In this document: positions 3,974-59,701 of the stretch, piece after piece
Numbering within the stretch: position 1 is the stretch's first letter
How the letters are laid out: every line of letters begins with the position of its first letter
Source of the DNA: Capitulum mitella
Taxonomy: Eukaryota > Arthropoda > Thecostraca > Pollicipedomorpha > Pollicipedidae
Reading direction: 5' to 3'
Assembly (NCBI GenBank): GCA_030062745.1
Contig: CP099840.1
Coordinates: 31,065,006 to 31,129,005 of the forward strand
DNA length: 64,000 nt
Made by a program: the position numbers and the translations under genes
The notes under the pieces: model-generated
The model's input: only the letters and a program-made list of their open reading frames with translations
Database searches by the model: none
What the model was told of the DNA's origin: nothing

Positions 3974-4131
3974 TCGCTACTATGCCACTCTCGCTATTAT
4001 ACCACTTTTGCTCGGGCCCGACAAAATTCAGTACAAAATAAATTTACTATGCCACCCCCTAATCTCGCTACTATGCCACGATTGTGTGTGTTGTATTTTC
4101 GAATTCAATTTTTTTTCAAATTCAGCCCACA

Positions 4132-5663
4132 ATGTCAGCTCAGAAACGCAAGCGAACCGACTTTACGCTGAAGGAGAAAAAGGAGATCATCGATGCCGCG
4201 AAGAAGGAGCCGAATCAGTCCAAGCTGGCCAGGGAGATGAGCAAGAAATGGGGCGTCGAAGTTAAGAGAACCACCGTGAAGGGCATTCTCAGCAAGAAGG
4301 ATGCAATCGAGGCGGCCATCAAAGCTGGAGTTCCATCGAAGCGCATGAAGCTGACGCAGGCTCACGACCCGAAGCTCGATGAGGGGGTGCTCATGTGGCT
4401 GAAGCAAGCAAGAGGACAGAATCTGCCAGTCAGCGGCGATCTGATCAAGGAGAAGGCGATGAAACTGGCCGAGCTGATGCACATCCCGGACTTCATGGCG
4501 AGCGACGGTTGGCTGGACAATTTCAAGAAGCGCCACGGCATCACGTTCAAGCAGGGCGAAGCTGGAGCGGTGGATTCGCAATCCCTTCTTGAGTGGCAAC
4601 AACAGGTTCTCCGGCCGGGCAGTTCTCCGCAGACGACGTCTTCAACCTGGACGAGACTAGACTCTTCTGGCAGCTGCTTCCGAGCAAGACCATGACTTTC
4701 AGGGGAGAGCGGTGCACTGGAGGAAAGAGAAGCAAGCAAAGGATCACTCTTCTGGTCGGGGCCAACATGAGCGGCAGCGAGAAGTTCCCTCTTCTGGCGA
4801 TCGGCAATTCCAAGAGACCCCGTGCCTTCAAGAACAAGGAGATCCCGGTCAAGTACAAGGCGAACTCGAAGGCGTGGATGACGGCGGAGCTTTTCGAGGA
4901 GGTGTTGCGTGCGTGGGACGGACGACTCGGCCAACAGGGACGCAGAGTGCTGCTCTGTCTCGATAACTTCTCTGGCCACCCTCCCGAGCTCCAGCTGGAC
5001 AACATCCAATTGGTCTTCTTCCCACCCAACACGCCAGCCAATTCTCAACCAATGGATCAGGTAATCATAGAGAACCTCAAGCGCCACTACAAGAAGTTCC
5101 TGCTGTGCCGCCGGCTCGAGGCCATGGACGAGGGAAAGGAGTTCAAGTTCACATTGCTCGACGCTCTTCACGTCGCCCGGCGTGCTTGGGAGCAGGTCAG
5201 CGAGTCGACGATCAGGAACTGTTTCGCGAAGGCCAAGTTCATCGAAGAGGAGATCCAAACTGAGCCAGAGGATGCTGAGCTGCTCGAGATCTGGGGAGCT
5301 CTACCTACCGAGGAAAAGATACACGAGAACGAGGAGATCGAGTTGTCTGACTTTCTCGAAGCCGACGAGCGCCTCGCGACTGGCGGGTCTTTCACGCTGG
5401 AGGAGATTGCGGAGGAGATGCTGCGCAGCGAGGAGCCGGTGGAAAGCGAAGACGACGAGGTGACTGTCGAGGAGGAAATCGTTCCGTTCGAGGAAGCCCA
5501 GCGCGCATGGAGCATCGTCCGGAAGTTCATGCAGCAGAGAAGCGGGAAGCCCGGTGTGATGCAAGCGTGCGATCGGCTAGACGAGATGCACGAGATCCGC
5601 CGAAAGAAGATGCGCCAGCCGACGATTCTTGAGAGCTTTGGGTTGAGCCGATGGGTAACTTGA
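4132..5663 (+). pseudogene. Tigger/pogo-type transposase, frameshifted
   Basis: The product would bind the element's ends and cut and paste it. The start chosen is the ATG at 4132 (MSAQKRKRTDF), just downstream of the left subterminal repeats; the open frame extends upstream but without homology. The first frame (to about 4610) holds a pipsqueak-type helix-turn-helix and then a CENP-B-type helix-turn-helix ending near WLDNFKKRHGI. The second frame (from about 4605) holds the DDE domain: Asp in FNLDET, Asp in LCLDNF and Asp in QPMDQ, with 30 residues between the last two, typical of pogo/Tigger. The C-terminus is very acidic. The frames differ by one base near 4605-4625 and the linker looks about two residues short, so a small deletion is likely, though a sequence error is possible. 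Confidence 0.9.
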
Positions 5664-44400: not shown

Positions 44401-47112
44401 GGCTTATTGGAGGGACGTGCCGCTCCCAGTGACAGCGGCCGGGCGTGTCTGCGGGGAGGCAGCGGCGTCGGTGTCGGAAATTAGGAGCACCGTGGCCTTT
44501 TGGCCTCTGACGATTGGCATAGCCAGCGACTCCGCTGAACGATATAAGAGGATTTGCACATGCAAGCTGGCGCTGATGTGTTCTAGGTGCAGCTCTCTGG
44601 GCAAAAGGCTTGCAGACGCGTATTGAATACATCACACCTATTTGCTACGTCCTTCTGTTCGAATTTGGTTGTTTTGAGTTGGGCTTCGCGGTGCCCGGGC
44701 GTGTTTGCTGTCGGCTTCTTGACGTGGCGTGGTATGGCGGCTTTTTTGGTAGGGCGTAATTATGATTTGTTTATGGTTTTCCTAAAGAGATGGGATATGG
44801 TAGATATATATGTAGAAACTTTTGCACAGTATTTCCCAAAGTCTATGTTTAAGTAACTTTTTATTGGAAGCGCTGAGACATGTCTGGATTTGCGACCATA
44901 CAAGAGATGAACGCGTGAGTCAACAGTCGAAAGCTAGCTCTCCGTGTGGCTCGTGTCTGGGCCATTTTTCCGCCCAGCTCTGGGCCGTTCCGCCCGCTGC
45001 GCTCCGGTCCGATGGGGTCGGAATTTCCGTCGATCCGGGGCCAGGCAGCTCCGGCAGCGGCGTCGCACGGGAGCCGCTGTCGGTAATCCTGACAACGCTG
45101 ACGGGTCGGCAGTCTGTCAGTGGTGTTCTCGAACAAGGAAAGCCGAGTCTGACCACACTGGGCCAAGGGGTGCGAATGGGGATAACGTGCAAGGTCTTCG
45201 GCGACCGTCAGGCATGTGTTGGTCGCCGTGGTCTCGCAGGGGAGGGACAGTGGGTGGACAACACCCACTGATGGTTCAGCCTCCTTCAGCCACCGACCCT
45301 CTAGCCGTCTCCCCTGGTCCAATCTCCGCCTCTTGAACGTGCCGGATTCTGAAGCGGATCCTATCGCGCCCTCCACCGGCCCGCGAGAGGCATCGATCCG
45401 ACGGCCGAACCGCCTCGGCGGCGACGACCGAGCCGGCCCCGGCTCCACCCTGCTCAGTTCTGAACACGGCATTGAAAGCGAACAATGGAACATTGAGGAA
45501 CTCTTTCAGGGCAAACTCTCATCCCCTGTAGAGTCCTCAGAGTATGAAAGGCACTGGTAGAAGTGGCTGGTCTCCCCGTCGAACAGCCGCCGGCCAGAAA
45601 ATCAGCTTAAAAACCGGGAGCTTTGCTTTCAGACGTGTTTTCAATGGCAAGTGCAAAGGGTTGTAAAGCATGAATATGATCACGGTTCCAAAATTACTAT
45701 TTTTGGTTACTTTTTGGTTTTCGCCATTTGGTTCAGTTTAAATGTCCCTTTTTTGTAGGGGTCCGTTGGCGAATTAAACAACCAAACATTTCCCTTAGCT
45801 GGCAAAGTCGTTGCTTTAGTTTTCCTTTCACTTTGCACTCTGAACCTCAACATTTCAGTTTAAAGGCCAACATTAGGTGTTTCGCTTGTTTCATTTGTCA
45901 TGAAGAGGATCCGAAACGTCTGTATTCCAGGGATGATTTCACCTGAATATCCTACTGATAATCGTGGCAGTTTAATGTAAAGCATAGAATAATATGATGG
46001 ACGCCATGAAAACCCGATGTATACGTTGGGATTTCATAACGTCCACAAACTCCATTAAATCCCGGTAGTCGTTTTCTTGAAAAAAGGCATCAAGTCATGG
46101 ACGGAAAGCGGTCGTAGCCCGGAGGCTTCTGACACACCACTGAACCAATTTCCAGAACAAATAATATGGTAGTTTATTACCCCGTAAACTGCTTCCCTTC
46201 TTATTTGGGAGAAGACATGCACTCGTCAGCCTATGTTTTTCTTTAAGAAATCAGCCCTAAGGCGGATCCACCGAGCCCTATCGACACATCTTGTCTGGCG
46301 AAGCTCTCGAGCTTACTCGGCCACGAAATGGCGAAAGAAAGTGGATGTGAGAAAAGCACTGTAACATGGTGGAACATTAATGACAGAAACATTCTTTTTT
46401 GTTTTTGATTTTTATCTATCAGCGTTCTTGGCTAAAACAAAAAAAAAATCATGCCTCGGGCGATTTCGTTCGCGTCAAAAACGAGCTCTGTCAAATAGAA
46501 ATCAAGATAAACCTGCAAATGCTTTCGATTGCTGTCCGTAGTAATCCAGCCGACCAAAAAAGATTAACCAAATTTCGGCATGCCGTGTGACTGCTGTGCC
46601 TTGTTAATCAACCTCGAGTACTTGTCACAAGATCCGGGTCAATTAGTGTGTCAGAGTGAATTTGACGCGTCATATTGTCAGTTGCAAGCCAAATTATAAT
46701 AGGAATTCAACATAATTTTGGCAGTTTTTTTGTAACCTTTGTTTATCATCGTTTATTTCCTGATTCTTGCGTAGATTGGAAAGGATTAGAATGGAATGGA
46801 AATGTGGACGGAACTCTGCATTTACTGCAGTAGAAATTCGGCTTGTCAGCCTATGCCAAAGCGAGATCGACAAATGTTGTTCATAATGCCGAGGCAAATT
46901 GAATCGAAGATTTGTCATTACCATGCTGAGAGCAGCCTCAGCCTTGTTTCCAGTCCCCTCCCCCGTCGAGCGGGCCGCTGGCAGGCTGAACTGTGGCTGG
47001 ACCGCTTCCGGACCGGTCTCCCAGGGCGCAAACGAAGCCAGCGATTAATCAGCGCTGTGGGCGGGCCGGCGCAAAAAGCGGCCCGGCCGGCAGAGACGGC
47101 GCCGCGCGGCTG
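38452..47112. other. Noncoding stretch with several GC-rich islands
   Basis: GC- and CpG-rich islands at about 39470-40050, 40480-41860, 42880-43680, 44090-44480 and 44940-45450 alternate with AT-rich DNA. Long open frames inside them overlap on both strands (for example 42895-43659 minus) without recognisable domains, so I call no genes. The frame at 45216-45560 plus ends in an acidic, protein-like stretch (IESEQWNIEELFQGK) but stays unassigned. Confidence 0.4.
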
Positions 47113-47325
47113 CCGTGTCAGACCACCAGCTCCTCAGACCGGCCGTGTCAGACCAGCAGCTCCACATACCGGCCGAGTCAGACCGCCAATTCCACCGACT
47201 GGCCGTGTCAGGCCACCAGCTCCGCATACCAGCTGAGTCAGACCACCAGCTCCACAGACCGGCCGTGTCAGACCACCAGTTCCGCATACCGGCCGTGTCA
47301 GAACACCGGTTCCCCAAAAGGGCCG
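47113..47325 (+). repeat. 30-bp minisatellite, seven copies
   Basis: A unit around GTGTCAGACCACCAGCTCC, ending in ACCGGCCG, recurs at exact 30-bp spacing. Because 30 is divisible by three, all three plus frames read as 10-residue repeats (for example RVRPPAPQTG). No start context, splice signals or flanking domain supports translation. Confidence 0.92.
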
Positions 47326-48474
47326 GGAAACACCACCCCCAAAAGAACCAAACGGAAAGGAGTCAGACCACCAATTCCACAGACAAAGCAGACTTCAGAC
47401 GAGCCCCCCATGTCCCCATCCACTTCCTTACAGCGACGCCTTGGCCTCCATCTCCCTAACTAACAACCTGTCCCAGTCCCTTTTCTTTCAACGAGTTCCT
47501 CTCAGCTCTCCACTGCCGCTCCGAGCTTAATTCAGGGCAGCATTCGGTCCTGTCGGTGCCGCCGTGCCGCCGGTCCGGTGGGTGCTCTGTCTTCTGCCGA
47601 TTGCCGACCCTTGGTTAAACATTCTGGTCTGCAAATGCGGCCCCTCACGTGTCGGATTTTCCGTCGCTGGTTTCTGCTGTCGCCGACGTGCGTCGGTGTA
47701 CACACGACTGCCGGGCGGAGCCAACGAACCAACCTGCACTGAAAAATTACAAACCGGTCTCCGGTTCGGCTCACAATCAAAGCCAAATTGGATGGGCGGC
47801 CCCAAAATCGCAAAAATGCGTTTTGTTGGTGATTAAGCTTCGTTATTGAACAGGTACCGCTGCGAGTAGAGGAAACAGTTATGACATGCTGTAGGATTGT
47901 TCACGCTCCGTCTGATGTGCAACGCAGTTCGGCCAATCGCTTTCGCTGACCTTATCGCGGCTGTCGTTCCTTGGCGCACACGTGACTTCCATTGGCAGAC
48001 AGGCAGACAATGGCGACGCTGATCGAAATCATCCGCGCACGCCGAGCGAATTAGTTCAATCGGCAGCCAATGTTTCGACAGATTGCCTGCCTTTCAGTGT
48101 GTACCGTGAGAGCTTGAACCACTCCAACTCGGAGTGGAGGTGGGTGCGAAATGTCGTAGACTTACGCTGCTGTTGCGCGGGCTGGTAATACAGAGCCTTG
48201 GTGCGACACCAGTCAGTCCTGTATTTGCATGTCTGGTAAAGCCTGCCTCTTTTCAAATGACGCACAAAGTCGCATATTTCTAAAAGATTCACAGCAGGTG
48301 CTAGTAAATGGAAGAACCTCAGGGTTGTTCCGTTTAAAGAGCTGCGCTCGATACCGGTAAAATTATTTTGATGCGATAAAATCCATTTATTTTTGCACTG
48401 CATTGCAGCGTTTTCATACGTGAAGTCAAGTAAAAAATGAACTTAATGCAACTTGTGGTCATTCTGTACTAGCT
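47326..48474. other. Noncoding stretch, nothing recognised
   Basis: Mixed composition with short chance ORFs. Confidence 0.4.
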
Positions 48475-49518: not shown

Positions 49519-49600
49519 ATGGGGCGGCTGAGACCGCAGCCGGGCACGGTCCTGCTCTGTGCCGTGTGCTGGACTGCACTGGCAGCGGCACTCTCCCTCG
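49519..49600 (+). CDS. Ddr: DDR exon 1: signal peptide
   Basis: Encodes residues 1-27 plus one base. A short basic N-terminus (MGRLRPQPG) leads into the hydrophobic core TVLLCAVCWTALAAALSL, a clear signal peptide. The donor is CTCG|GTAAGG, phase 1. The joined codon with exon 2 gives Asp28. Confidence 0.85.
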
Positions 49601-52600
49601 GTAAGGACTGGTCGACAGAAAGGCTGCCCGGCGTCTGGTCCCACTGACAGATGTTTGAGGGGATTTCTTCGAGTTCAGTAGATTTGGTGTTCAGTTTAGC
49701 AGAGGGATCCATGAGGAATGAAATCGGTCCAGTAGCTATTCGTGGCTTGAAATGGCTGCATGGTTTAGGTTGGGACCTTATATATGACCTTGTCTTCTGC
49801 GCATCCTGAAACTCGAATGACCAGTCAACGCGCAATTCAGCCGTCGATACGACAAAAGTTGGCTGACCGTGACGTGGCACAGCCAGGGAAATGTGACCTG
49901 GGTCAACAAAGCATGAGTCCACGTCGCCTAAATCTCCCGAAAGCGACGGGGGTATACAACTGCGAGCTCATGTGGTTGCAGCATTTACGGCAGGCAGGGC
50001 AGCAACCCTGCCAACCTGGCGGCGGCCCTGCCAACTAGGAATGGATTTAACGTTAGGTCTGTGGCGTTGCATGCGAAGAAATTGCCGAAAAGCGGCTCTG
50101 GCCCTTCCAGCTTCGAAAAGGCCCCTACCTGGGGCGTTTAACTAGGCAGGCTGCTCTGCGAACTGATACGGCCTGACGCCCCTCCGGGTGACCGGGCCCG
50201 ACTGACGGTGACCGCTCGGCGTGACCGACAGACCAGTGTGACCGGCCGCTGGGCATGGAGTCGGGCGAGATCGCCGACGGCCAGATCTCGGCCAGCTCGT
50301 CGCACAACGAGAACAGCGTGGGCGCGCACAGCGGCCGCATCCGGACGGAGCACCGCGGCGGCGCCTGGTGCCCCGTCTCGGTCATCACGGCCGACGTGCA
50401 CGAGTTCCTGCAGATCGACCTCGGCCGGCCGACCGTGGTCACCGCCGCCGAGACGCAGGGCCGCTTCGGCAACGGCCGCGGCGTCGAGTGGGCCGAGCGG
50501 TACGCGCTGCAGTACTGGCGGCCCGGCCGGGACGGTGACACCGGCTGGAGGACCTACCGGAACGCCTCCGGCCACACCCTGCTGGACGGCAACGTCAACC
50601 CGTACCTGGCGCACAAGACGCCGCTCAACCCGCCGCTGATCGCCACCAAGGTGCGCCTGGTGCCCCGCAGCGAGCACCCGCGCACCGTCTGTCTGAGGGC
50701 AGAGCTGTACGGCTGTCTATACACAGGTACGTGGTACGCAGAGGTACACCGTCTGTCTCAGAGCAGAGTTGTACGGCTGTTTGCATACAGGTGCGTGGTA
50801 TACAGAGGTACAACATGTTTTTAATGCAAAGCTGCACGGTTGTACGTGCACAGGTATACGTGGTATCACAAGTAACGTGAGTGAGGCTTGTGAATGTACA
50901 AGTTCATGTTTCCAAAAAAGAAATGTTTAAGCTGGCCTGTAAATAGTCTGCATTTTTCCAAACATGTTGATCGAAAGGCCCAAAGTTTGTGGAAATTGCA
51001 ACTTTGCGCGCTGGTATCCATTTCATTTGCGCACGTTTGTCTTTTGACCAAAGTAAGGTAAAAAGTGCATTTATTTCAAGAAAGTGTAAAAATTGTGTAT
51101 TCCGTGGCGTAACTACAATGCGGGGATATACGTTGTGGAAGAACCTGCGCTGTTAGATTCAAGAAGACGATAAGCTATAACCCGGCTTAATACTCGAACG
51201 TGCATCACCTGAAGCGAACCCCGCATCCCTTGAACCGAAACCTGCATCCTCGTCCGCCAGCCCTCCGTGGTATTCCGGCTGTTCAAAGCGCCGCCAAACG
51301 TTCCAGTCTGAGCACATGTGGACATGTGTACTGATCGCAGCGTTTTGGTATGTGCATAGTCGATTTATGAGACAGATAAAGGCAATTGCCGTAGGTATGG
51401 TTACACCGAGGAATGCCCAGCGGTAATGGCTCTTGCATTTCGACACGGGCCCTAACGAGGCCCTGGCCTCATGTGCACGTCTGGAACGGCCGGATGACAT
51501 CACGACCGTCGGACGCGCCCTAAAAGGGGTCAAACCGTGCGATGAAACCAGTGATTTGTCCATTGTTATTGCTTGGTTCAGCACTCAGCTTGTTTAGAAT
51601 CGCTTTCTGATGCACGGCTGTTCCCACGGCGTAGTGAAGGACGGTTGTCCATCCTGATTGCAGCCGGCATCGACAGCTACAGCATGGACGTCCCTGAGCC
51701 GAAATGGCCCGACCTGACCTATGATGGTGTTCGGACAGCAAATGTTATGGAGAAGGGACTCGGACAACTTGCTGACGGCCAAGACGGCAAAAACGACATC
51801 ACCAGTGAGTCACATCGTTCGACTGAGTGTGTTGTCTCGGGAGGGAGTGAAACTCATATTGATGAATCCTGGGCATTGACGTTATAGTGAAATTATCGAT
51901 TCTTACAACTGAAACAATTCGTGGTATAGCTCGAAGGCCACAGCAATGATTAATTCAAAGTTGGGTGTTAGGATCATGTGATAAGTTTAAAGAGCTTGAA
52001 AAAGACCGGGTTCGATACTGATTAATCGGATGAACTTGAAGTATTTTTGCAAATGCATTTGAATTATGGAACTTTGCTGACAATGTGGTTATGATTATTT
52101 GCAAACCATCCAAGGACTTCGGATGAGCTAATCCCGCTTTTTGTCATAACCTTTCTTTGGAGCACAAGCAACATCCGGAGATTACGAGGCTTTTTGGCTC
52201 AGCTTCAGACACATGAGAATGTCATGTATTTGCCACCATCGTTTTTTCCGTTTCCTAATTAGCGCGTCATTCCTGACGTTTTTCGGTCATGGGAAAACAT
52301 AACACGGGATTAAGACGTTTGTAAACATTAGCCACTGGCTGGTAACAATCTTCTGCAGTTAGTGCGGGCACCGCCGGCTCCATGAAGGGCCTGGTGGGCA
52401 GGGCCTCAGTTATCTTCTGATGCGGCGATAGGGCCCTGCTCCGCAGACCTGATGACATCGGTCTGGTGTATTTCGGGCCGGCCCGTCTGGCTGTAGTGGC
52501 GGGAGAACAGGTGCGGACTCGCTCCAGAATCCACCACTGGGGATCAGCGCCAGTCGGCCTCGGCTGGGCGCCAGTAGAGGCGCGGCGGACGGCGCGGGAA

Positions 52601-55600
52601 ACAATGGATCCGCCGCCATCACGCCTTATTTAGCGTTCGAAACGCACCAGGGCTTTGTGTGTTCAAACAGATCTGACCCAGATTAAAAAAACGAGGTCGG
52701 AATAGAGCGGAGGAGATGCGTGATCCATGTCATTGCTGGCTGAGACCCTCTGAGGACCACAGTCGGGCGACGGCGGCCCCCGCGACATGCAGTGCGTTTC
52801 TCCAACCGTCGTCAGACGCGCGTCAAACCCTCTCACCTGAGTCCGGTAGACTTTGGCGGAACTCGCCGCTTGGTGGCATAGGTCGATAATCAATTACTGA
52901 AGTTCGTGTTCCCCATTCCATCGCCATTAAGCTGTAGTCCTTCAAAGGCGTAAACGTCTTCGGAATTCTAAGGAATTAGATTGGTTGGACCAAACTGAGG
53001 CAAAGTCATTCACGCCACTATTATACAGCAAGGATTAATGGAACTTTGTCACAAATGTCAATATATGTCACGAGAGTGACTGGGTTTATAGTGACTCTCA
53101 TAAGCTTAGGTCATCTCGTCAACAAATACTTGTATGCAGACTTTGATATAAATGTGCCGTGGACATATGGGGGAAGCATCACCTTGGATGTTTAGCTGCA
53201 TACAGTGGACCATGCTATTCACGTCTTCGCCATTTGCTGCTGCTCGTATTCGTGGATTTTTGGGGGAAATTAACTGAAACAATCGCAGGAAGATATCTTC
53301 TAATTTCTCCGCAGCGGAAACCGTTTCCAGCGGTTCATGGCGCTTTTGTTGCATATCTCTTGAAGACAAGAATTGTAGAACAAAAAAATCCTGTTGTACA
53401 TCTTGTATAATACTATATGTATGTATCTGTACAATTTTTTTCAGGACGTATTACTTTATAACTATGCCTTAAAATGCATGCACTGGTCTCGTACAGGGTC
53501 TGTAAGTAATGGAAATAACTTAAAGGGTAAAAATAGTGGTTCTGATGGTAGTTTCCACTATATTTCAGTGGCCTTCACACCCAAAAGTCGATGGGTTTTT
53601 TCGACGGAATCAAGGAAGATATGTTATATGACCGGTATGAACCTTGTTGCAGTCATTATTACTGTGCTATCGCTCGGGATTACTAAGGAATGCGACGAGT
53701 GTGACAGTGCCTCGCGTTTGCACTCCACATATATGCGTAAAAATTGCTCTAAATTTGCCACACTGTGGGGCCGACACCCTGCCACCGTTACACCATCAGG
53801 GTCGGAGTGGGTCGGCTGGAAGAGGACGCCGGGACAGCTGGTCACGCTGACGTTCCAGTTCAGCACGCTGCGCGAAATCGAGTCGGCTTCATTCCACGTC
53901 AGCAACCACTTCACGGCCGGCGTCAAGGTACGGCCGCAGAGCGTCATCGCTGGAGGTCTTATTATCAGTCCGGAGCGTGCGATCGGGATCTTTTATGTTA
54001 CGCTCAGAAAGGCTGTCTTGGCATTCTCGGCGAGTCAAGGATAGCTCTGTGTTTATCACCTTTATGATGATGTCACTCTAGGAGAGGGTGAACCAAGTCC
54101 TCACGATACCGGGCAAGAAGGGATTCGTAGCATAATGCCGTCAGCTCGTTCCTCTAAACCGCGACATCCGTCTGCCTATTGACCTGAGATCAAATCATCA
54201 CTTCCTCTTTATCCAATAAACTGAGGTCAGGGGCACCTAGTCTATCCACTGGTCTGGGGCCTCTGTGTCAACACTTCCTTGAACAGCGGACAGTCCCTGC
54301 TCCGTTATGACGGGTGACTCGGCGGTCTCTGCCCCTCGGTGACGGCTGACCGGGGGCCGGCAGATGTTCTCCCAGGCGGCGTTGTTCTTCTCGCTGGACG
54401 GACAGCGGTACACGGCCACCGCCGTGACGCTGCAGCCGCCGCCGGACCGCATCTTTGAGGATTCGCGCCTGCTCAGCGTCAGCCTGCACCGCCAAGTGGC
54501 GCGCTTCGTGCGGATCCAGCTGACAGCCGCCGACAGCTGGCTACTGCTCTCCGAGGTCAGCTTCGACAGCGGTGAGTACCGGACCGTGACCCAAGGTCAG
54601 GTCGGCCCTGGTCAGTCGGCCGAGCGCCGGAGACCGGCCCGAACAGGGCAGGATCGGAACACCGTCTGTCATCGCTGGTATTATCATATGCAGCAACGAA
54701 AACAACTATCACGCCACAACCACACGGCTGTCTTATTCCGCGACGCATAACAACGGAATAAGGACGAGCACAACAGTATTGTTTTTAGGGGCCTCTGAAG
54801 CCGTAGCTCTGAGGCATTTTCTTGCTATTACTCTTCATTATGTACCTGCATAGTAAGAGCCTACCATTGCATAAACATGGCAATAGACACTTCATCGTCT
54901 GTAGGTTGTGTTCCTGCTTTCGAATAGGAACATCAGTACATACCTCAGTACTGCACTCTGCATGAGCAGGAACGCTGGTCAGGCGAACAAAAACATGTAT
55001 CGTTTTGCTGTCGTGTCGAAACTCCCGAAAATATTCCTTCTGAATGTCCTGACGCGGCATAAAACGAGAAGACGTCTGTTCAGGGCACAGCGACTAACTT
55101 TACCGTCAGATGGGTTTTCAGCAGATGAATTTTCATAGCATTGCTATTGCCAAACGTGACGCAGATCTGCAATGTTTTCTGTTCGATTCTGGCAGGATTA
55201 AAGGTTTCTGTGTCATTGATTTTGTGAAGCGCTTGCCAGCTGAAAATCTCAATGCGTATAGTGGCGGTCAAAGGACGCGTTGTACCGCAGTGCGAGGTGA
55301 CGACCGCTTCAGCGGCCGTAAGCTGCGTGTGAACGGCCGCCGGGCGGGCTCTTCGGTCCGAGCTTTCGACGGCGCCACTCGGGGCCTTTTTGTGCAGATC
55401 AGAGTTAACGTCCCCGGCCGTAACTCATTGGCCGGCCGTAAAGCCAAACAAGCGCGCCCAAACGACGCCTGCTGGATCGCTCGGTTTTCACGGGCCGCGG
55501 CCTGTGACCCAGTGCCGGGCCACCCTCGGTGTCCGCCGACCGGGCCCCGGCACCCGCGGCGCCCGCCGGCCGGGCCCCGGGAGCCGGCGAATTTAGGCCA

Positions 55601-58600
55601 GCCGCGCGCGGCTCTGGCCGCTGTTTGCAGCCGGCTAACGCGTTGCATGCACGGAACGTGATAATCGCTGTAGCCCAAATGGGCCGGGCGACTGAAAAGA
55701 ATGCGTGCCCTCCTTGAACTTTCGATATCAGAAATCAAATGGCCTGAAATTCGTGCGTTGCGTTATGCATGCTGACTCTGCAATTTGCATACATTAGTGG
55801 CCATGGGGTGTGGAGAGGCAATGAATGAATGGACCAGGTGAAAGTGTTTATGAAGTCCGAGTATGTGAAATCATGTCGTTATACCGTGAAGATGTTCTCG
55901 TGCTGTGAGGTCGCTAAGACGCGAATGTGACGTATAAAAGACTCGAAGCCACTTGTATCGCCTCCTTAGCGATACCTTGACCTACGCTTTTACATAAGAT
56001 AAGTGGCAGGTTGAATGGTGCTCAGAGGCCTTTGATTTTGATTTCTGCCGTATGGCAAATGTTGCACGAACCGCATTACAGTTTCCAAAATTGCAAAACG
56101 CAATGAAATTGTCAAAGCCAGCAGCAGCCCTGGACTGATGGGTTTCCACTAACCTCCACCCACACTTCGTTCATCGATCTGACCATGAAGAGTGTAACTC
56201 CTGCCGCGACAGAACACACCCTGTGTCCCCGCGAGCCCGGAGCGGATCCTCGACGCCTCCTCTGACGCCGTCGCCGCGCCGGCAGCGCCGTCCACGGCAA
56301 ACGTGACGCACCTGGCGACGGCCGGCGGCGACGTGACGGCCGCGCCGCCGGCCGCCGAGGCCGGCGCGGCGCCGCACGCCTCCCTGGGCGTCATCCTGGG
56401 CGTGCTCGGCCTGGTGCTGCTGCTGCTCTCGGCGCTGGTCGGGTACGTGGTGCGCGCCAGCCGGCGGAGGAAGGTGGCCGGCGGCCCCGGGCCGACCCCG
56501 CTGCCGCTGGCGCGCACGCTCAACATGAAGGAGCTGCGGCTGAGCATGCCGCTGACGGCCGGGCCGGGCCTGGGCCGCGGCCACGGCGAGCTGTACGGCC
56601 CGCTGCCGGCAGACGAGGACAAGGTCGGCCTCTGCGCCGAGCCGTACCGGCTGGTGCGGCTCGGGGCGGAGCACGGCACCGCCGCCCGCCACGGAGCACG
56701 CAGAGCACCCGGTGAGTGGAGCTGAAGGCGTACAGCAGGCTGTCGGATGTGCTCATGATGCGTTGTTGACGGTACACTGCTCAGGTTCAGGGATGTCAGG
56801 TTCTTGGTCGTAAAGAGAAAAAAATGGGGCAAACCGAAACTAAGAAAAATAAATTGTCGTGGGTCGGAAGGCGTTTGCCTTTTATTATTCGTCTAGCTCT
56901 GAGAAAAGTGGCTGGCCCGCATGTTGCTGCGAGCTTAATTGAAAAAAAGAAACTACCCAGAACATTGTCATATACCAGTCACTCCGTTTGGCATCGGTCC
57001 AATCCCCCCTGACGGGACCGGCGGGCCCGCAGAGCCGCCGTACGACTACGCCGTGCCGGTGGACAGCGGTACGCCTCCGCCGCCGTTCTCGGACTGCGTG
57101 CCGGCGGCTCGCGGCGGCGGCACGGCCTCCTGGGACAACCCCAACTACAAACAATCGCCGGGCAGCACCACCCAGTCGGGCAGCCAGCCGTCCGTGTGCA
57201 CGATCGCCGACCTGCTGCCGGCGCCGCCGCCGGTGCCGCCGCCGCCCGAGCAGCCGTGTCCGACGCTGGCGCGCCGCCGCCGCGTGCTGGCTCGCTCCGT
57301 GGAGGGTCTGACCGGCACCTGCGTCTGGGACGACCGGCGCGCCGCCGCCACTGCCGCCTCCGCCGCCGCGCCCAGCGTCAGGGACATTAACGGCGAGCTG
57401 ATCAGACGTCGGGAGAAGATCGGAGAGGGCCGGTTTGGAGAGGTCAGGAGGGGCTGCTGCCGGGGGGCCAAACAACTCCGCCAAGAGTCTTTCTGACAAC
57501 GTATCCTCGGCCGATTTCATTAACGCTGGCCTATTGTAAACTGCCCGTTTCTTGTAGATTACTGTGCTTAGTGGAGCTGGCAACGAACGGTTGGCTTTGT
57601 TTTCGTCGCTTGAGGAAATTCATTAGGCTCCTTCCGGAAAATTGTGCGTACTTGACGCGAAAAGGATCTGTTGTTATAATTTATACACAATGGTTCATGA
57701 AATACAGCGTATGTCACGGACATAAACGAATGTTTCACCCAAATGGAGATCGAAGCTGTGAGCGCGACGCTCACGGTCGGCGGTGGTCCCCCTCAGATCC
57801 ACGCCTGCGAGGTGCATTTCGCCTCGTCGCCGGACAGCCCGTACCAGGCGCCGTCCCGCCTGGCCACGGCCCGCTGCCTGCGCGCCTCCGCTCCGTCGGA
57901 CGCCGCCGCCCGACTGCGCCAGGAGGCCGAGCCGCTGGCGCGCGTCACCGACCCGCACGTCACCCGGCTGCTGGGCGTCTGCGTGCTGGACGACGCCTGC
58001 TGCCTGCTGGTCGAGTACATGGAGCGGGGCGACCTGAGCCAGTTCCTGCGCCGGACGCCGCACGAGACGGGCCGCGGGCCCCGGCCGCTCGAGTGAGTCA
58101 CGGCCGCGGCCGTCCGGCCCGCCTTGCGCAACGTGTTTGTGTTGAGCGTTTGAGGTCAGCCGGCCTCCTTCTAATGACCGTTAAAGGTGTTTGTTGTTTT
58201 GGGATTGCCTTTTGGCGCCTTTGACATCGGGGATTATTAGCGTCGTGGCCTTTCACCCTGTTGAGGTGCTTGGTGAAGCGACCTAAATACCCTTCGGTCT
58301 TATCGTGTTTCTGTCGCCATTTCGTTCTTTTCTACTGCTTGGCATGCTTTGAATTCAGTAATTTTGACTTACAAATGAATCTAAAAAACATGCACATTTA
58401 CTGCATTTTTCGTTCTTATGGTGCCTGAAAGTATCGCGATCAAGGGCCACTTCCTCCTTCATAAGGGCTGCCTTGTTGCCCGGACCGGCCACTACAGGTC
58501 GACAGTTATCGACTCGGTTAAGTGCGCGCCTCCTCCTCAATAGAATCGGCCGCGGCCGCGATCCAGCGCTGAATAAAACATGACGGGGGATCCGGCCCGG

Positions 58601-59701
58601 ATCCACCGCCGACGCTGCCGCCTGACGCTCGTCTGCCGCATCAGGTACGGCTCGCTGATCTACATGGCGACGCAGATCGCGGCCGGCATGAAGCACCTGG
58701 AGGCGCTTGGGATCGCGCACCGCGACCTGGCCGCCCGCAACTGCCTGGTCGGCCACCACCTGAAGGTCAAGGTCGGCGACCTGGGGCCGAGCCGGGCGCA
58801 GTACGCCGGCGACTACGTCACGCTGCCCGACGGCCGGGTGGTGCCCCTCCGCTGGCACGCCCCCGAGGCGCTGTTCTCAGTGAGTGGCGGCTGGTCGGCC
58901 CGGTGGTTTGATGCTCCCGGTTTTTGCGCCGGCGGCGGCGCTGGTGGCCGGGCCGAGTCGACGGTCCGCGCCGCCAGCGCGGTCGGAACTCGGCCGTCCA
59001 CCGGCGCCAATTGCAGCGGCGCTATCTGACCGCGGTCCGCGATGAGCCGACCTGCGGACGTGCTCTGGCCGCCTGGCACCGGTCTCCGGGGCGTTATCGC
59101 CGGCCGCAGACGGTGCTCTGGGCCCGTTATTGACCTACGGATACCCGCCGTGTGCCGGCGGGCGGTTGTTCCGGTATTGTACGCGGTGTACCGGGCCATT
59201 AACAGCGCAGGAAGTTGCGGCTTATCAGGTAACCAAAAACGTGCTTAGGTCATAAGTGCGCGATGCTGGCCGTAATAGCGCACGAACGGAGCTTCCTGAT
59301 AGTGACGATTGAACTCGTGACCATTGGTTCACGGGCCATGTGCGCCTGACCTCCGCCGCCGTTACCTGACCCTGTCGGCCCGCTACTGTCCTCAGGACCA
59401 GTCCAGCTCGGCGGCCGACGTCTGGTCGTTCGCCGTGACGCTGTGGGAGGTGCTGACGCGCTGCCGCGTGCAGCCGCTGGCGCAGCTGTCGGACGCGGCC
59501 GTCACCGAGCGGCTGGCCGGCTACCGCGAGGCGGCCGGCGAGCCGTTGCTGCCGCAGCCGGGCGCCTGCCCGCGCGAGATCTTCGACCTGATGAGCGAGT
59601 GCTGGCGCGCCGAGCCGAGCGCGCGGCCCTCGTTCGGCGAGATCCACATGTTCCTGCAGAGGAAGAACCTCGGCTTCGAGCCGGCCGCCGAGCCGACGTG
59701 A
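49519..59701 (+). CDS. Ddr: Discoidin domain receptor tyrosine kinase, 10 coding exons, 908 aa
   Basis: DDRs are membrane receptor tyrosine kinases activated by collagen that act in adhesion and matrix sensing. Coding exons: 49519-49600, 50232-50726, 51664-51804, 53800-53927, 54364-54571, 56286-56711, 57033-57442, 57797-58092, 58645-58879, 59396-59701. All introns are GT-AG, phases match, and the total is 2727 nt. Layout: signal peptide about 1-25; discoidin domain C30-C189 (LGMESG, ASSS, ELYGC); DS-like domain about 193-350 (GLGQLADG, WVGW); transmembrane helix 385-407 with GVILG, then basic residues; proline-rich juxtamembrane region with NPNY (529-532), a Shc-type PTB site as in vertebrate DDR1; kinase about 620-898. 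The Gly loop GEGRFGE, alphaC Glu673, HRDLAARN (754-761) and APE (801-803) are intact. The beta3 lysine is Arg656 and DFG is DLG (774-776). Length fits the family (vertebrate DDR1 about 913). The least certain junction is the exon 6 acceptor. Confidence 0.93.
50232..50726 (+). CDS. Ddr: DDR exon 2: discoidin (collagen-binding) domain
   Basis: Encodes residues 28-192. The acceptor is GACCGACAG ending at 50231, and the exon begins in phase with DQCDRPLGMESG. It spans essentially the whole F5/8 type C discoidin domain, from C30 to C189 (ELYGC). Arg105 and Glu113, which form a salt bridge in human DDR2, are conserved at the same numbers. The residue matching Trp52 is His52, and the one matching Asp69 is Gly70. 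N138 (NAS) is a possible N-glycosylation site. The donor is ACACAG|GTACGT, phase 1; this donor region is tandemly triplicated. Confidence 0.95.
50683..50874 (+). repeat. Three tandem copies of the exon 2 splice-donor region
   Basis: A 64-bp unit comprising the last 44 bp of exon 2, the donor and about 20 bp of intron (50683-50746) is repeated at 50747-50810 (54 of 64 identical) and, more diverged, at about 50811-50874. Each copy keeps CAG|GT: donors at 50727 (GTACGT), 50791 (GTGCGT) and 50854 (GTATAC). Only the first keeps the phase for exon 3. Confidence 0.92.
51664..51804 (+). CDS. Ddr: DDR exon 3: start of DS-like domain
   Basis: Encodes residues 193-239. The acceptor is CCTGATTGCAG and the donor ACCA|GTGAGT, phase 1 at both ends. 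It contains DLTYDG and the strongly conserved DDR motif GLGQLADG. Confidence 0.92.
53800..53927 (+). CDS. Ddr: DDR exon 4: DS-like domain
   Basis: Encodes residues 240-282. The acceptor is TTACACCATCAG, phase 1; the donor is GTCAAG|GTACGG, phase 0. It carries WVGWKRT and a beta-sandwich segment TLTFQFSTLREIES, matching the DDR VGWR...F.FD.IR pattern, and ends at AGVK. Confidence 0.9.
54364..54571 (+). CDS. Ddr: DDR exon 5: end of DS-like domain
   Basis: Encodes residues 283-351. The acceptor is GGGGGCCGGCAG, phase 0, and the donor AGCG|GTGAGT, phase 1. It begins MFSQAALFFSLDGQ, continuing the GVK of exon 4, and ends LLLSEVSFDS, the DDR 'SEI.F.S' motif before the extracellular juxtamembrane stretch. 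Confidence 0.9.
56286..56711 (+). CDS. Ddr: DDR exon 6: transmembrane helix and juxtamembrane region
   Basis: Encodes residues 352-493. It holds a possible N-glycosylation site (N357-V-T), a transmembrane helix at 385-407 with a GxxxG pair, the basic stop-transfer RASRRRKV, and a conserved-looking LNMKELRLSMPL. The donor is CACCCG|GTGAGT, phase 1. The acceptor at GCGCCGGCAG (ending 56285) is chosen because it preserves phase 1 without a stop. The frame is open upstream to 56213 and beyond, so the exact start is less certain. Confidence 0.8.
57033..57442 (+). CDS. Ddr: DDR exon 7: cytosolic juxtamembrane region and glycine loop
   Basis: Encodes residues 494-630. It begins EPPYDYAVP and contains NPNY (529-532), proline clusters (PAPPPVPPPPEQP) able to serve as SH3/WW ligands, and the start of the kinase domain ending KIGEGRFGE. 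The acceptor is GGGCCCGCAG, phase 1. The donor is GAG|GTCAGG, phase 0, a slightly weak donor supported by how well exon 8 continues the domain. Confidence 0.9.
57797..58092 (+). CDS. Ddr: DDR exon 8: kinase N-lobe
   Basis: Encodes residues 631-728. The acceptor is GGTCCCCCTCAG and the donor CTCGA|GTGAGT, phase 2. It begins IHACEV, matching the DDR VHLCEV. The beta3 strand reads LATARCLRA, putting Arg656 (CGC, 57872-57874) at the ATP-binding lysine position. Glu673 of helix C is conserved, followed by LLGVCVLDD and VEYMERGDLSQFL. Confidence 0.93.
58645..58879 (+). CDS. Ddr: DDR exon 9: catalytic and activation loops
   Basis: Encodes residues 729-807. The acceptor is GTCTGCCGCATCAG, phase 2, and the donor TTCTCA|GTGAGT, phase 0. 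It contains MATQIAAGMKHLEALG, HRDLAARN with catalytic Asp756 and Asn761, DLG (774-776) instead of DFG, activation-loop tyrosines Y782 and Y786, and RWHAPEAL. The third tyrosine of the vertebrate DDR activation loop is Val787. Confidence 0.95.
59396..59701 (+). CDS. Ddr: DDR exon 10: kinase C-lobe and stop
   Basis: Encodes residues 808-908 and the TGA stop. The acceptor is CTACTGTCCTCAG, phase 0. It carries SSAADVWSFAVTLWEVLT, the QPLAQLSDAAV segment typical of DDRs, and CWRAEPSARPSF near the end of the domain. The tail after the domain is short, as in vertebrate DDRs. Confidence 0.95.
   Translation, partial: DQSSSAADVWSFAVTLWEVLTRCRVQPLAQLSDAAVTERLAGYREAAGEPLLPQPGACPREIFDLMSECWRAEPSARPSFGEIHMFLQRKNLGFEPAAEPT

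What the first reader, a model, noticed from the sequence alone, without database searches (positions are those of the whole stretch)
57797..58879. DDR kinase with the ATP-binding lysine replaced by arginine and DLG in place of DFG
An ungapped alignment to vertebrate DDR2 over 22 residues, from the beta3 strand to the helix C glutamate, places Arg656 (CGC) exactly at the VAIK lysine. AAG/AAA to CGC differs at all three bases, so a sequencing error is unlikely. HRDLAARN, the alphaC Glu and APE are intact, so this is not simple decay. From general knowledge, K-to-R at this site usually abolishes activity, while WNK kinases lack this lysine, use another one and also carry DLG. The gene may encode a pseudokinase DDR or one with altered ATP handling. 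Loss of the third activation-loop tyrosine (Val787) points the same way.
Basis: partly seen in the sequence, partly recalled or inferred. Interest (0 to 1): 0.72.

Follow-up and report, generated by a model that had tools for sequence, protein, structure and literature searches.

The report
Collagen-receptor kinase lacking its ATP-binding lysine
A probable barnacle genome carries a small clade of collagen-receptor genes whose kinase part has lost the lysine that normally holds ATP but is still under selection, alongside an ordinary copy that keeps it, which suggests receptors that have given up or changed their own enzyme activity.

Summary
The window holds an intact ten-exon discoidin domain receptor gene (49519-59701, 908 aa). 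Arg656 (CGC, 57872-57874) lies under the VAIK lysine of human DDR2/DDR1, with DLG for DFG.

(1) The beta3 motif is ATAR, so its Ala is also changed, to Thr. (2) The genome has five DDR loci. Twin genes on contig C3 share ATAR and DLG and also have HGD for HRD; a fourth locus is canonical; a fifth has HKD and DTG. (3) Window gene and twins form one clade (100/100) with kinase dN/dS below 1 (0.31-0.36 to the twins, 0.19 between them). The Arg therefore predates their split: neither an error nor recent decay.

A WNK-type substitute lysine is excluded: there is no Lys from glycine loop to hinge. The closest precedent for natural Lys-to-Arg is KSR1/2.

Most likely it is a catalytically impaired "receiver" DDR, phosphorylated in trans by the canonical DDR, as shown for engineered kinase-dead DDR1 (PMC5489314). 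Residual activity is not excluded. No transcript, other-species or biochemical data were available.

The parts
49519..49600 (+). Exon 1: signal-peptide exon (MGRLRPQPGTVLLCAVCWTALAAALSL)
   Evidence: Nearer of two candidates in a scan for a hydrophobic leader with a phase-1 donor; gives 908 aa and Arg656. Prediction only.
50232..50726 (+). Exon 2: discoidin (DS) domain, 91% identical at protein level to both C3 twins
   Evidence: PF00754 hit; DDR2 DS structures, E 6.5e-38; own-genome hits
50234..50865 (+). Putative gene-conversion tract shared with the C3 twins: exon 2 plus start of intron 2
   Evidence: W-D synonymous differences 14.5 of 125.3 sites here against pS 0.43-0.74 in exons 3-5 and 0.42-0.50 in kinase exons; about 90% DNA identity over 636 columns; ungapped identity falls to 0.8 just past the exon and then towards background. 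The intron part is a tandem repeat of the exon end, so the right edge is unsure.
51664..54571 (+). Exons 3-5 (51664-51804, 53800-53927, 54364-54571): DS-like domain
   Evidence: PF21114; gene model
56286..56711 (+). Exon 6: extracellular juxtamembrane, transmembrane helix (56405-56452 LGLVLLLLSALVGYVV), start of cytoplasmic part
   Evidence: Translation; core LGLVLLLLSALVGYVVRA identical in twin copies
57033..57442 (+). Exon 7: cytoplasmic juxtamembrane with YDYAVP (57041-57058) and NPNY (in WDNPNY, 57131-57148); ends with glycine loop GEGRFGE (57422-57442)
   Evidence: Translation; tyrosines and NPxY conserved in both twins
57797..58092 (+). Exon 8: beta2 to hinge and beyond, with ATAR in place of VAIK
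57872..57874 (+). Codon CGC = Arg656 at the VAIK lysine site
58645..58879 (+). Exon 9: catalytic loop HRDLAARN, DLG, activation loop YAGDYV, APE
59396..59701 (+). Exon 10: C-lobe and stop codon

Best explanation
A functional, selected DDR paralogue whose kinase domain keeps the fold, Mg and catalytic-base residues but has lost normal ATP anchoring (VAIK to ATAR). It most likely works as a receiver and scaffold subunit. It clusters with the genome's canonical DDR in the membrane, is phosphorylated in trans on its conserved juxtamembrane tyrosines (NPNY, YDYAVP) and activation loop, and recruits signalling proteins while adding little or no phosphotransfer of its own. Shown here: the anatomy, the shared Arg, the constraint and the canonical partner gene. 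Inferred: loss of activity, partnering and docking.
For: Arg under the VAIK Lys in the phmmer alignment; no Lys at all from glycine loop to hinge. The same ATAR in 2 further genes, and K at this site in the other 2 of 5 DDR loci, one of those a tentative exon. W/D/E clade 100/100. Window against twins: kinase dN/dS 0.36 and 0.31, catalytic-loop exon 0.15; twins 11 synonymous against 6 nonsynonymous changes, dN/dS 0.19, Fisher p 0.0008. NPNY, juxtamembrane Tyr and TM core kept in the clade. Kinase-dead K655A DDR1 receivers are phosphorylated by active DDR1, and signalling-incompetent DDR1 receiver dimers also with DDR2 as donor (PMC5489314, abstract and passages). Natural Lys-to-Arg is known in KSR1/2, and residue size at the VAIK Ala has been suggested as diagnostic for poor ATP binding in some (pseudo)kinases (PMC7586955, passages; PMC5583734, passages).
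Against: HRD Asp, Asn, DxG Asp, glycine loop and helix C Glu are all intact in the window gene. It evolves more slowly than the HGD twins (14 against 38 polarised changes, 38 unpolarised), as an active enzyme might. Exons 8 and 10 are less constrained (window-D 0.45 and 0.48), and between the twins exons 2 and 3 show no purifying selection (0 synonymous, 7 nonsynonymous; 1 and 4). Arg can keep the salt bridge to helix C Glu. There is no expression, interaction or activity evidence, and no second species was checked.
Confidence: 0.5

Rival explanations
1. Still an active, atypical kinase: Arg656 holds helix C Glu and ATP, with the rest of the site intact, giving reduced or retuned activity.
For: All other catalytic residues present; slow evolution of the window copy relative to the HGD twins (branch 0.077 against 0.436; 14 against 38 polarised changes); catalytic-loop exon most constrained.
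Against: The VAIK Ala is also changed. Mutation of the equivalent DDR1 Lys655 abolishes collagen-induced phosphorylation (PMC5489314, passage). The twins went on to lose the HRD Arg, as expected once catalysis is not needed. The third activation-loop Tyr is lost in the clade.
Confidence: 0.27
2. Catalytically dead decoy or kinase-independent adhesion receptor: binds matrix, damps or competes with canonical DDR signalling.
For: The DS exon is 91% identical across the Arg clade on two contigs, apparently by gene conversion, so the ectodomain is kept alike while the kinase diverges.
Against: The kinase domain itself shows dN/dS below 1, and docking tyrosines are kept.
Confidence: 0.15
3. Relaxed drift: a redundant duplicate losing lysines under strong GC bias, on the way to decay.
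For: GC3 of the window kinase exons is 0.96, with 5 Lys and 30 Arg in 290 residues, against 8 and 24 in the canonical DDR; long stem branch of the clade (0.70); exons 8 and 10 only moderately constrained.
Against: Open reading frame over ten exons with GT-AG splice sites. The canonical DDR of the same genome keeps its Lys, as do the 4 of 8 other kinase loci whose beta3 could be read. dN/dS is well below 1 since the duplication.
Confidence: 0.07
4. Assembly or gene-model artefact.
For: None found.
Against: All three codon bases differ from AAA/AAG; same codon in two other genes; ungapped frame through the site.
Confidence: 0.01

Closest known systems
DDR1/DDR2 receptor tyrosine kinases (vertebrate)
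   Same: DS + DS-like + TM + juxtamembrane region with tyrosines + tyrosine kinase; best PDB matches of both the kinase and DS parts
   Different: ATAR for VAVK, DLG for DFG, third activation-loop Tyr lost; His at the position of the collagen-site Trp52 of DDR2, though none of this genome's five DDRs has Trp there
KSR1/KSR2 (kinase suppressor of Ras)
   Same: Natural Lys-to-Arg at VAIK (PMC5583734; PMC7586955; passages); dimer partner of an active relative, RAF (PMC5583734; PMC10322840; passages)
   Different: Different family (RAF-like); KSR keeps the VAIK Ala, lost here (PMC7586955)
Engineered kinase-dead DDR1 K655A receiver
   Same: Same residue position altered; shows that a dead DDR can still be phosphorylated by an active one (PMC5489314, passages)
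   Different: Laboratory mutant (Ala), not a natural gene
EphA10/EphB6, ROR1/2, PTK7 receptor pseudokinases
   Same: Transmembrane receptors with altered kinase motifs; ROR1, ROR2 and PTK7 are among the PDB hits
   Different: Different subfamilies; EphA10/EphB6 lack all three canonical motifs VAIK, HRD and DFG (PMC7586955), here VAIK and only the F of DFG are changed
WNK kinases
   Same: No Lys at the VAIK site
   Different: No substitute Lys from glycine loop to hinge here; where WNK places its own is from recall

Membership tests
Discoidin domain receptor | DS (F5/8 type C) and DS-like domains | tested here: met
   PF00754 5.5e-22 and PF21114 3.5e-39 on the spliced ectodomain
Discoidin domain receptor | Tyrosine kinase domain closest to DDR1/DDR2 | tested here: met
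   Top 11 of the 60 PDB rows shown are DDR1/DDR2; seven DDR rows group against two other kinases of the genome, support 91/95, below the tool's star
Discoidin domain receptor | Collagen binding | not testable with these tools
   His at the DDR2 Trp52 site; canonical paralogue has Phe, C2 locus Tyr
Active protein kinase | VAIK lysine | tested here: not met
   Arg656
Active protein kinase | Helix C Glu, HRD Asp, catalytic-loop Asn, DxG Asp, glycine loop | tested here: met
Pseudokinase | Lack of at least one conserved catalytic residue | tested here: met
   VAIK to ATAR
Pseudokinase | Shown lack of phosphotransfer | not testable with these tools
   Needs biochemistry
WNK-type kinase | Substitute lysine in beta2/glycine loop | tested here: not met
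   No Lys from GEGRFGE to the hinge
KSR-type allosteric partner | Natural Lys-to-Arg with the VAIK Ala kept | tested here: not met
   Lys-to-Arg present, but Ala is Thr

The most novel reading that the evidence does not exclude
In this lineage collagen sensing has been divided between an enzyme DDR and a clade of natural receiver DDRs that gave up the ATP lysine. Gene conversion keeps their ligand-binding exon alike across two contigs while the kinase halves specialise: one HRD-intact and slow-changing, two HGD and fast. It would be a receptor tyrosine kinase system built on dedicated substrates rather than on duplicate enzymes.
Probability: 0.3. Interest if true: 0.7.

Novelty: new variant of a known kind. 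Interest (0 to 1): 0.5.

Why it matters
Receptor pseudokinases are known (Eph, ROR, PTK7; HER3 from recall), but I saw no report of a DDR gene in this state. That rests on open-licence PMC searches only: (listings seen for 20 of 43, 12 of 55 and 15 of 39 hits) and passages of four kinome or pseudokinase papers, none of which describes a DDR pseudokinase in the passages shown. With one canonical and three Arg-type DDRs in one genome, the trans-phosphorylation model of DDR activation, which I saw shown with engineered mutants, becomes testable with natural proteins. If the genome is a barnacle's, it bears on settlement: two DDR transcripts in Balanus amphitrite rise with larval development, peak in the cyprid and fall after settlement (PMC3146488, passages).

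Tried and rejected
WNK-like relocation of the lysine: rejected, no Lys from glycine loop to hinge. Alternative exon carrying Lys: none seen; exon 8 is one exon in window and twins, but introns were not scanned for a hidden exon. An apparent AVGR match in the canonical DDR (L026) was tblastn running into an intron; the true exon has VAVK. Loss of the collagen-site Trp as a mark of the Arg clade: rejected, since all five DDRs lack Trp there (window His, twins Tyr and His, canonical Phe, C2 locus Tyr). The beta3 exon of the C2:0.43 Mb DDR was placed by hand from the listing (SVAIAK, fifth by score, chosen because its donor and phase match the canonical intron); it is tentative, so its Lys is too. 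Control on other kinases: 8 loci in hand, a beta3 VAxK was readable in 4 of 8 (all Lys), the other 4 gave no beta3 match to the pattern. Identity of the organism was not tested: 477 Mb in 16 contigs fits the barnacle Capitulum mitella (463 Mb, 16 chromosomes, PMC8416341; another assembly 512 Mb, PMC11331182). Paper searches on pseudokinase kinomes, Drosophila Ddr (no hits) and crustacean DDR added little. Rfam gave no hit in the window at gathering score.

Full report
Observation. The window lies at G000:C2:31065006-31129005 in a 477 Mb, 16-contig genome. I rebuilt the gene from raw sequence: ten exons from 49519 to 59701, all nine introns GT-AG, 908 residues with one terminal stop, Arg656 encoded by CGC at 57872-57874. 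Pfam finds PF00754 and the DDR-specific DS-like domain PF21114 in the ectodomain and PF07714 in the kinase part (218.8 bits, cut-off 23.1). The best PDB relatives are the DDR2 and DDR1 kinases (6fer, E 6.9e-75) and, for the DS exon, DDR2 (7azb, E 6.5e-38). In the phmmer alignment Arg stands under the VAVK lysine with no gap to the helix C Glu. HRDLAARN, the DLG Asp, APE and the glycine loop are intact, and the third activation-loop Tyr is Val. There is no lysine at all from the glycine loop to the hinge.

Paralogues. PF21114 gives 15 matches in the genome, three at each of five loci: the window gene; two inverted copies on C3 at 2.41 and 2.49 Mb; C3 at 11.21-11.25 Mb; and C2 at 0.42-0.46 Mb. 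The two C3 copies (D, E) read ATAR with the same CGC codon, DLG, and HGD where HRD is expected. The C3 11.2 Mb gene is canonical: VAVK, HRDLATRN, DFG, DYY. The C2 0.43 Mb gene has HKD and DTG; its beta3 exon, tentatively placed, reads AIAK. A protein tree of nine rows puts window, D and E together with support 100/100, on a stem of 0.70 changes per column; the C2 gene and then the canonical gene join next with moderate support (91/92, 90/94). The window branch is 0.077 and the D/E branch 0.436.

Selection. Nei-Gojobori counts over 290 kinase codons: window-D dS 0.71, dN 0.26, ratio 0.36; window-E ratio 0.31; D-E 11.0 synonymous changes in 226 sites and 6.0 nonsynonymous in 644, ratio 0.19, Fisher p 0.0008. 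The exon with the catalytic loop and activation segment is the most constrained (window-D 0.15); exon 8, which holds ATAR, and exon 10 are less so (0.45, 0.48). Polarised with the canonical gene and DDR2 as outgroups, 14 changes fall on the window lineage and 38 on the E lineage, 38 could not be polarised; with the canonical gene alone 14 and 34 (43 open), with DDR2 alone 8 and 24 (59 open). So Arg656 most simply arose before these genes split, and the window copy has changed less since than the twins. Against my reading, this slow rate is also what an active enzyme would show.

Ectodomain. Exon 2 (DS domain) is 91% identical in protein between the window gene and the twins on another contig. 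Its window-D synonymous divergence is 14.5 of 125.3 sites, against 0.42-0.74 per site in the other exons compared (Fisher p 5e-14 on rounded counts). The similarity reaches a short way into intron 2, where the exon end is repeated in tandem, and stops near the exon start upstream. Gene conversion is the simplest reading. Between the twins this exon has 0 synonymous and 7 nonsynonymous changes and exon 3 has 1 and 4, so there is no sign of purifying selection there over that short time. The DDR2 collagen-site Trp52 (described in PMC5489314) is His here, but none of the five DDRs has Trp, so this does not mark the Arg clade.

Mechanism. Shown: an intact, constrained DDR with a rebuilt VAIK site, retained juxtamembrane NPNY and YDYAVP tyrosines, a conserved transmembrane core in the clade, and a canonical DDR in the same genome. 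Known from print: altering Lys655 of DDR1 abolishes its collagen-induced phosphorylation; a K655A receiver is still phosphorylated on juxtamembrane and activation-loop tyrosines when co-expressed with active DDR1; DDR2 can serve as donor for signalling-incompetent DDR1 receivers; and the process is abolished by transmembrane mutation but does not need the receiver's ectodomain (PMC5489314, abstract and passages). Natural Lys-to-Arg occurs in mammalian KSR, where residual phosphotransfer remains unvalidated (PMC5583734, passage; PMC7586955, passages). Inferred: the window gene is a natural receiver or scaffold DDR. Residual activity with Arg in place of Lys is the main rival.

Setting. Size and chromosome number fit a stalked barnacle, an inference not tested by markers. 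In a barnacle, two DDR transcripts were highest in cyprids (PMC3146488, passages), and one gene named DDR2 was listed as positively selected in a deep-sea species (PMC7077169, passages). A whole-genome duplication has been proposed for barnacles (PMC11331182, passages), a possible source of the paralogues. The passages do not tell which DDR locus they concern.

Limits. One genome, no transcripts, no other species, no biochemistry, no structure model. Novelty rests on open-licence literature: listings and passages of four papers.

Noticed in passing
window 50234-50865; G000:C3:2407794-2408285 and C3:2496817-2497308: DS-domain exon far more alike between contigs C2 and C3 than the rest of the gene, with similarity running into the intron: likely gene conversion.
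   Followed up: partly
window 50683-50812: The end of exon 2 with its splice donor is repeated in tandem into the following intron (64-base period); similar repeats follow the exon in the twins.
   Followed up: no
G000:C3:2407794-2414740 and C3:2487583-2497308: Inverted twin DDR genes about 73 kb apart, 91-96% identical in DNA over the main matching blocks, with HGD in place of HRD.
   Followed up: partly
G000:C2:424308-461784 (- strand): A fifth DDR with HKD and DTG and a divergent N-lobe, not in the Arg clade; possibly another atypical kinase.
   Followed up: partly
window 4063-5663 (+): Tc5/pogo-like transposase pieces in two overlapping frames: HTH_Tnp_Tc5 3e-18 and DDE_1 9.3e-46.
   Followed up: no
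window 47112-47337: 30/60-base minisatellite, about 3-7 copies.
   Followed up: no
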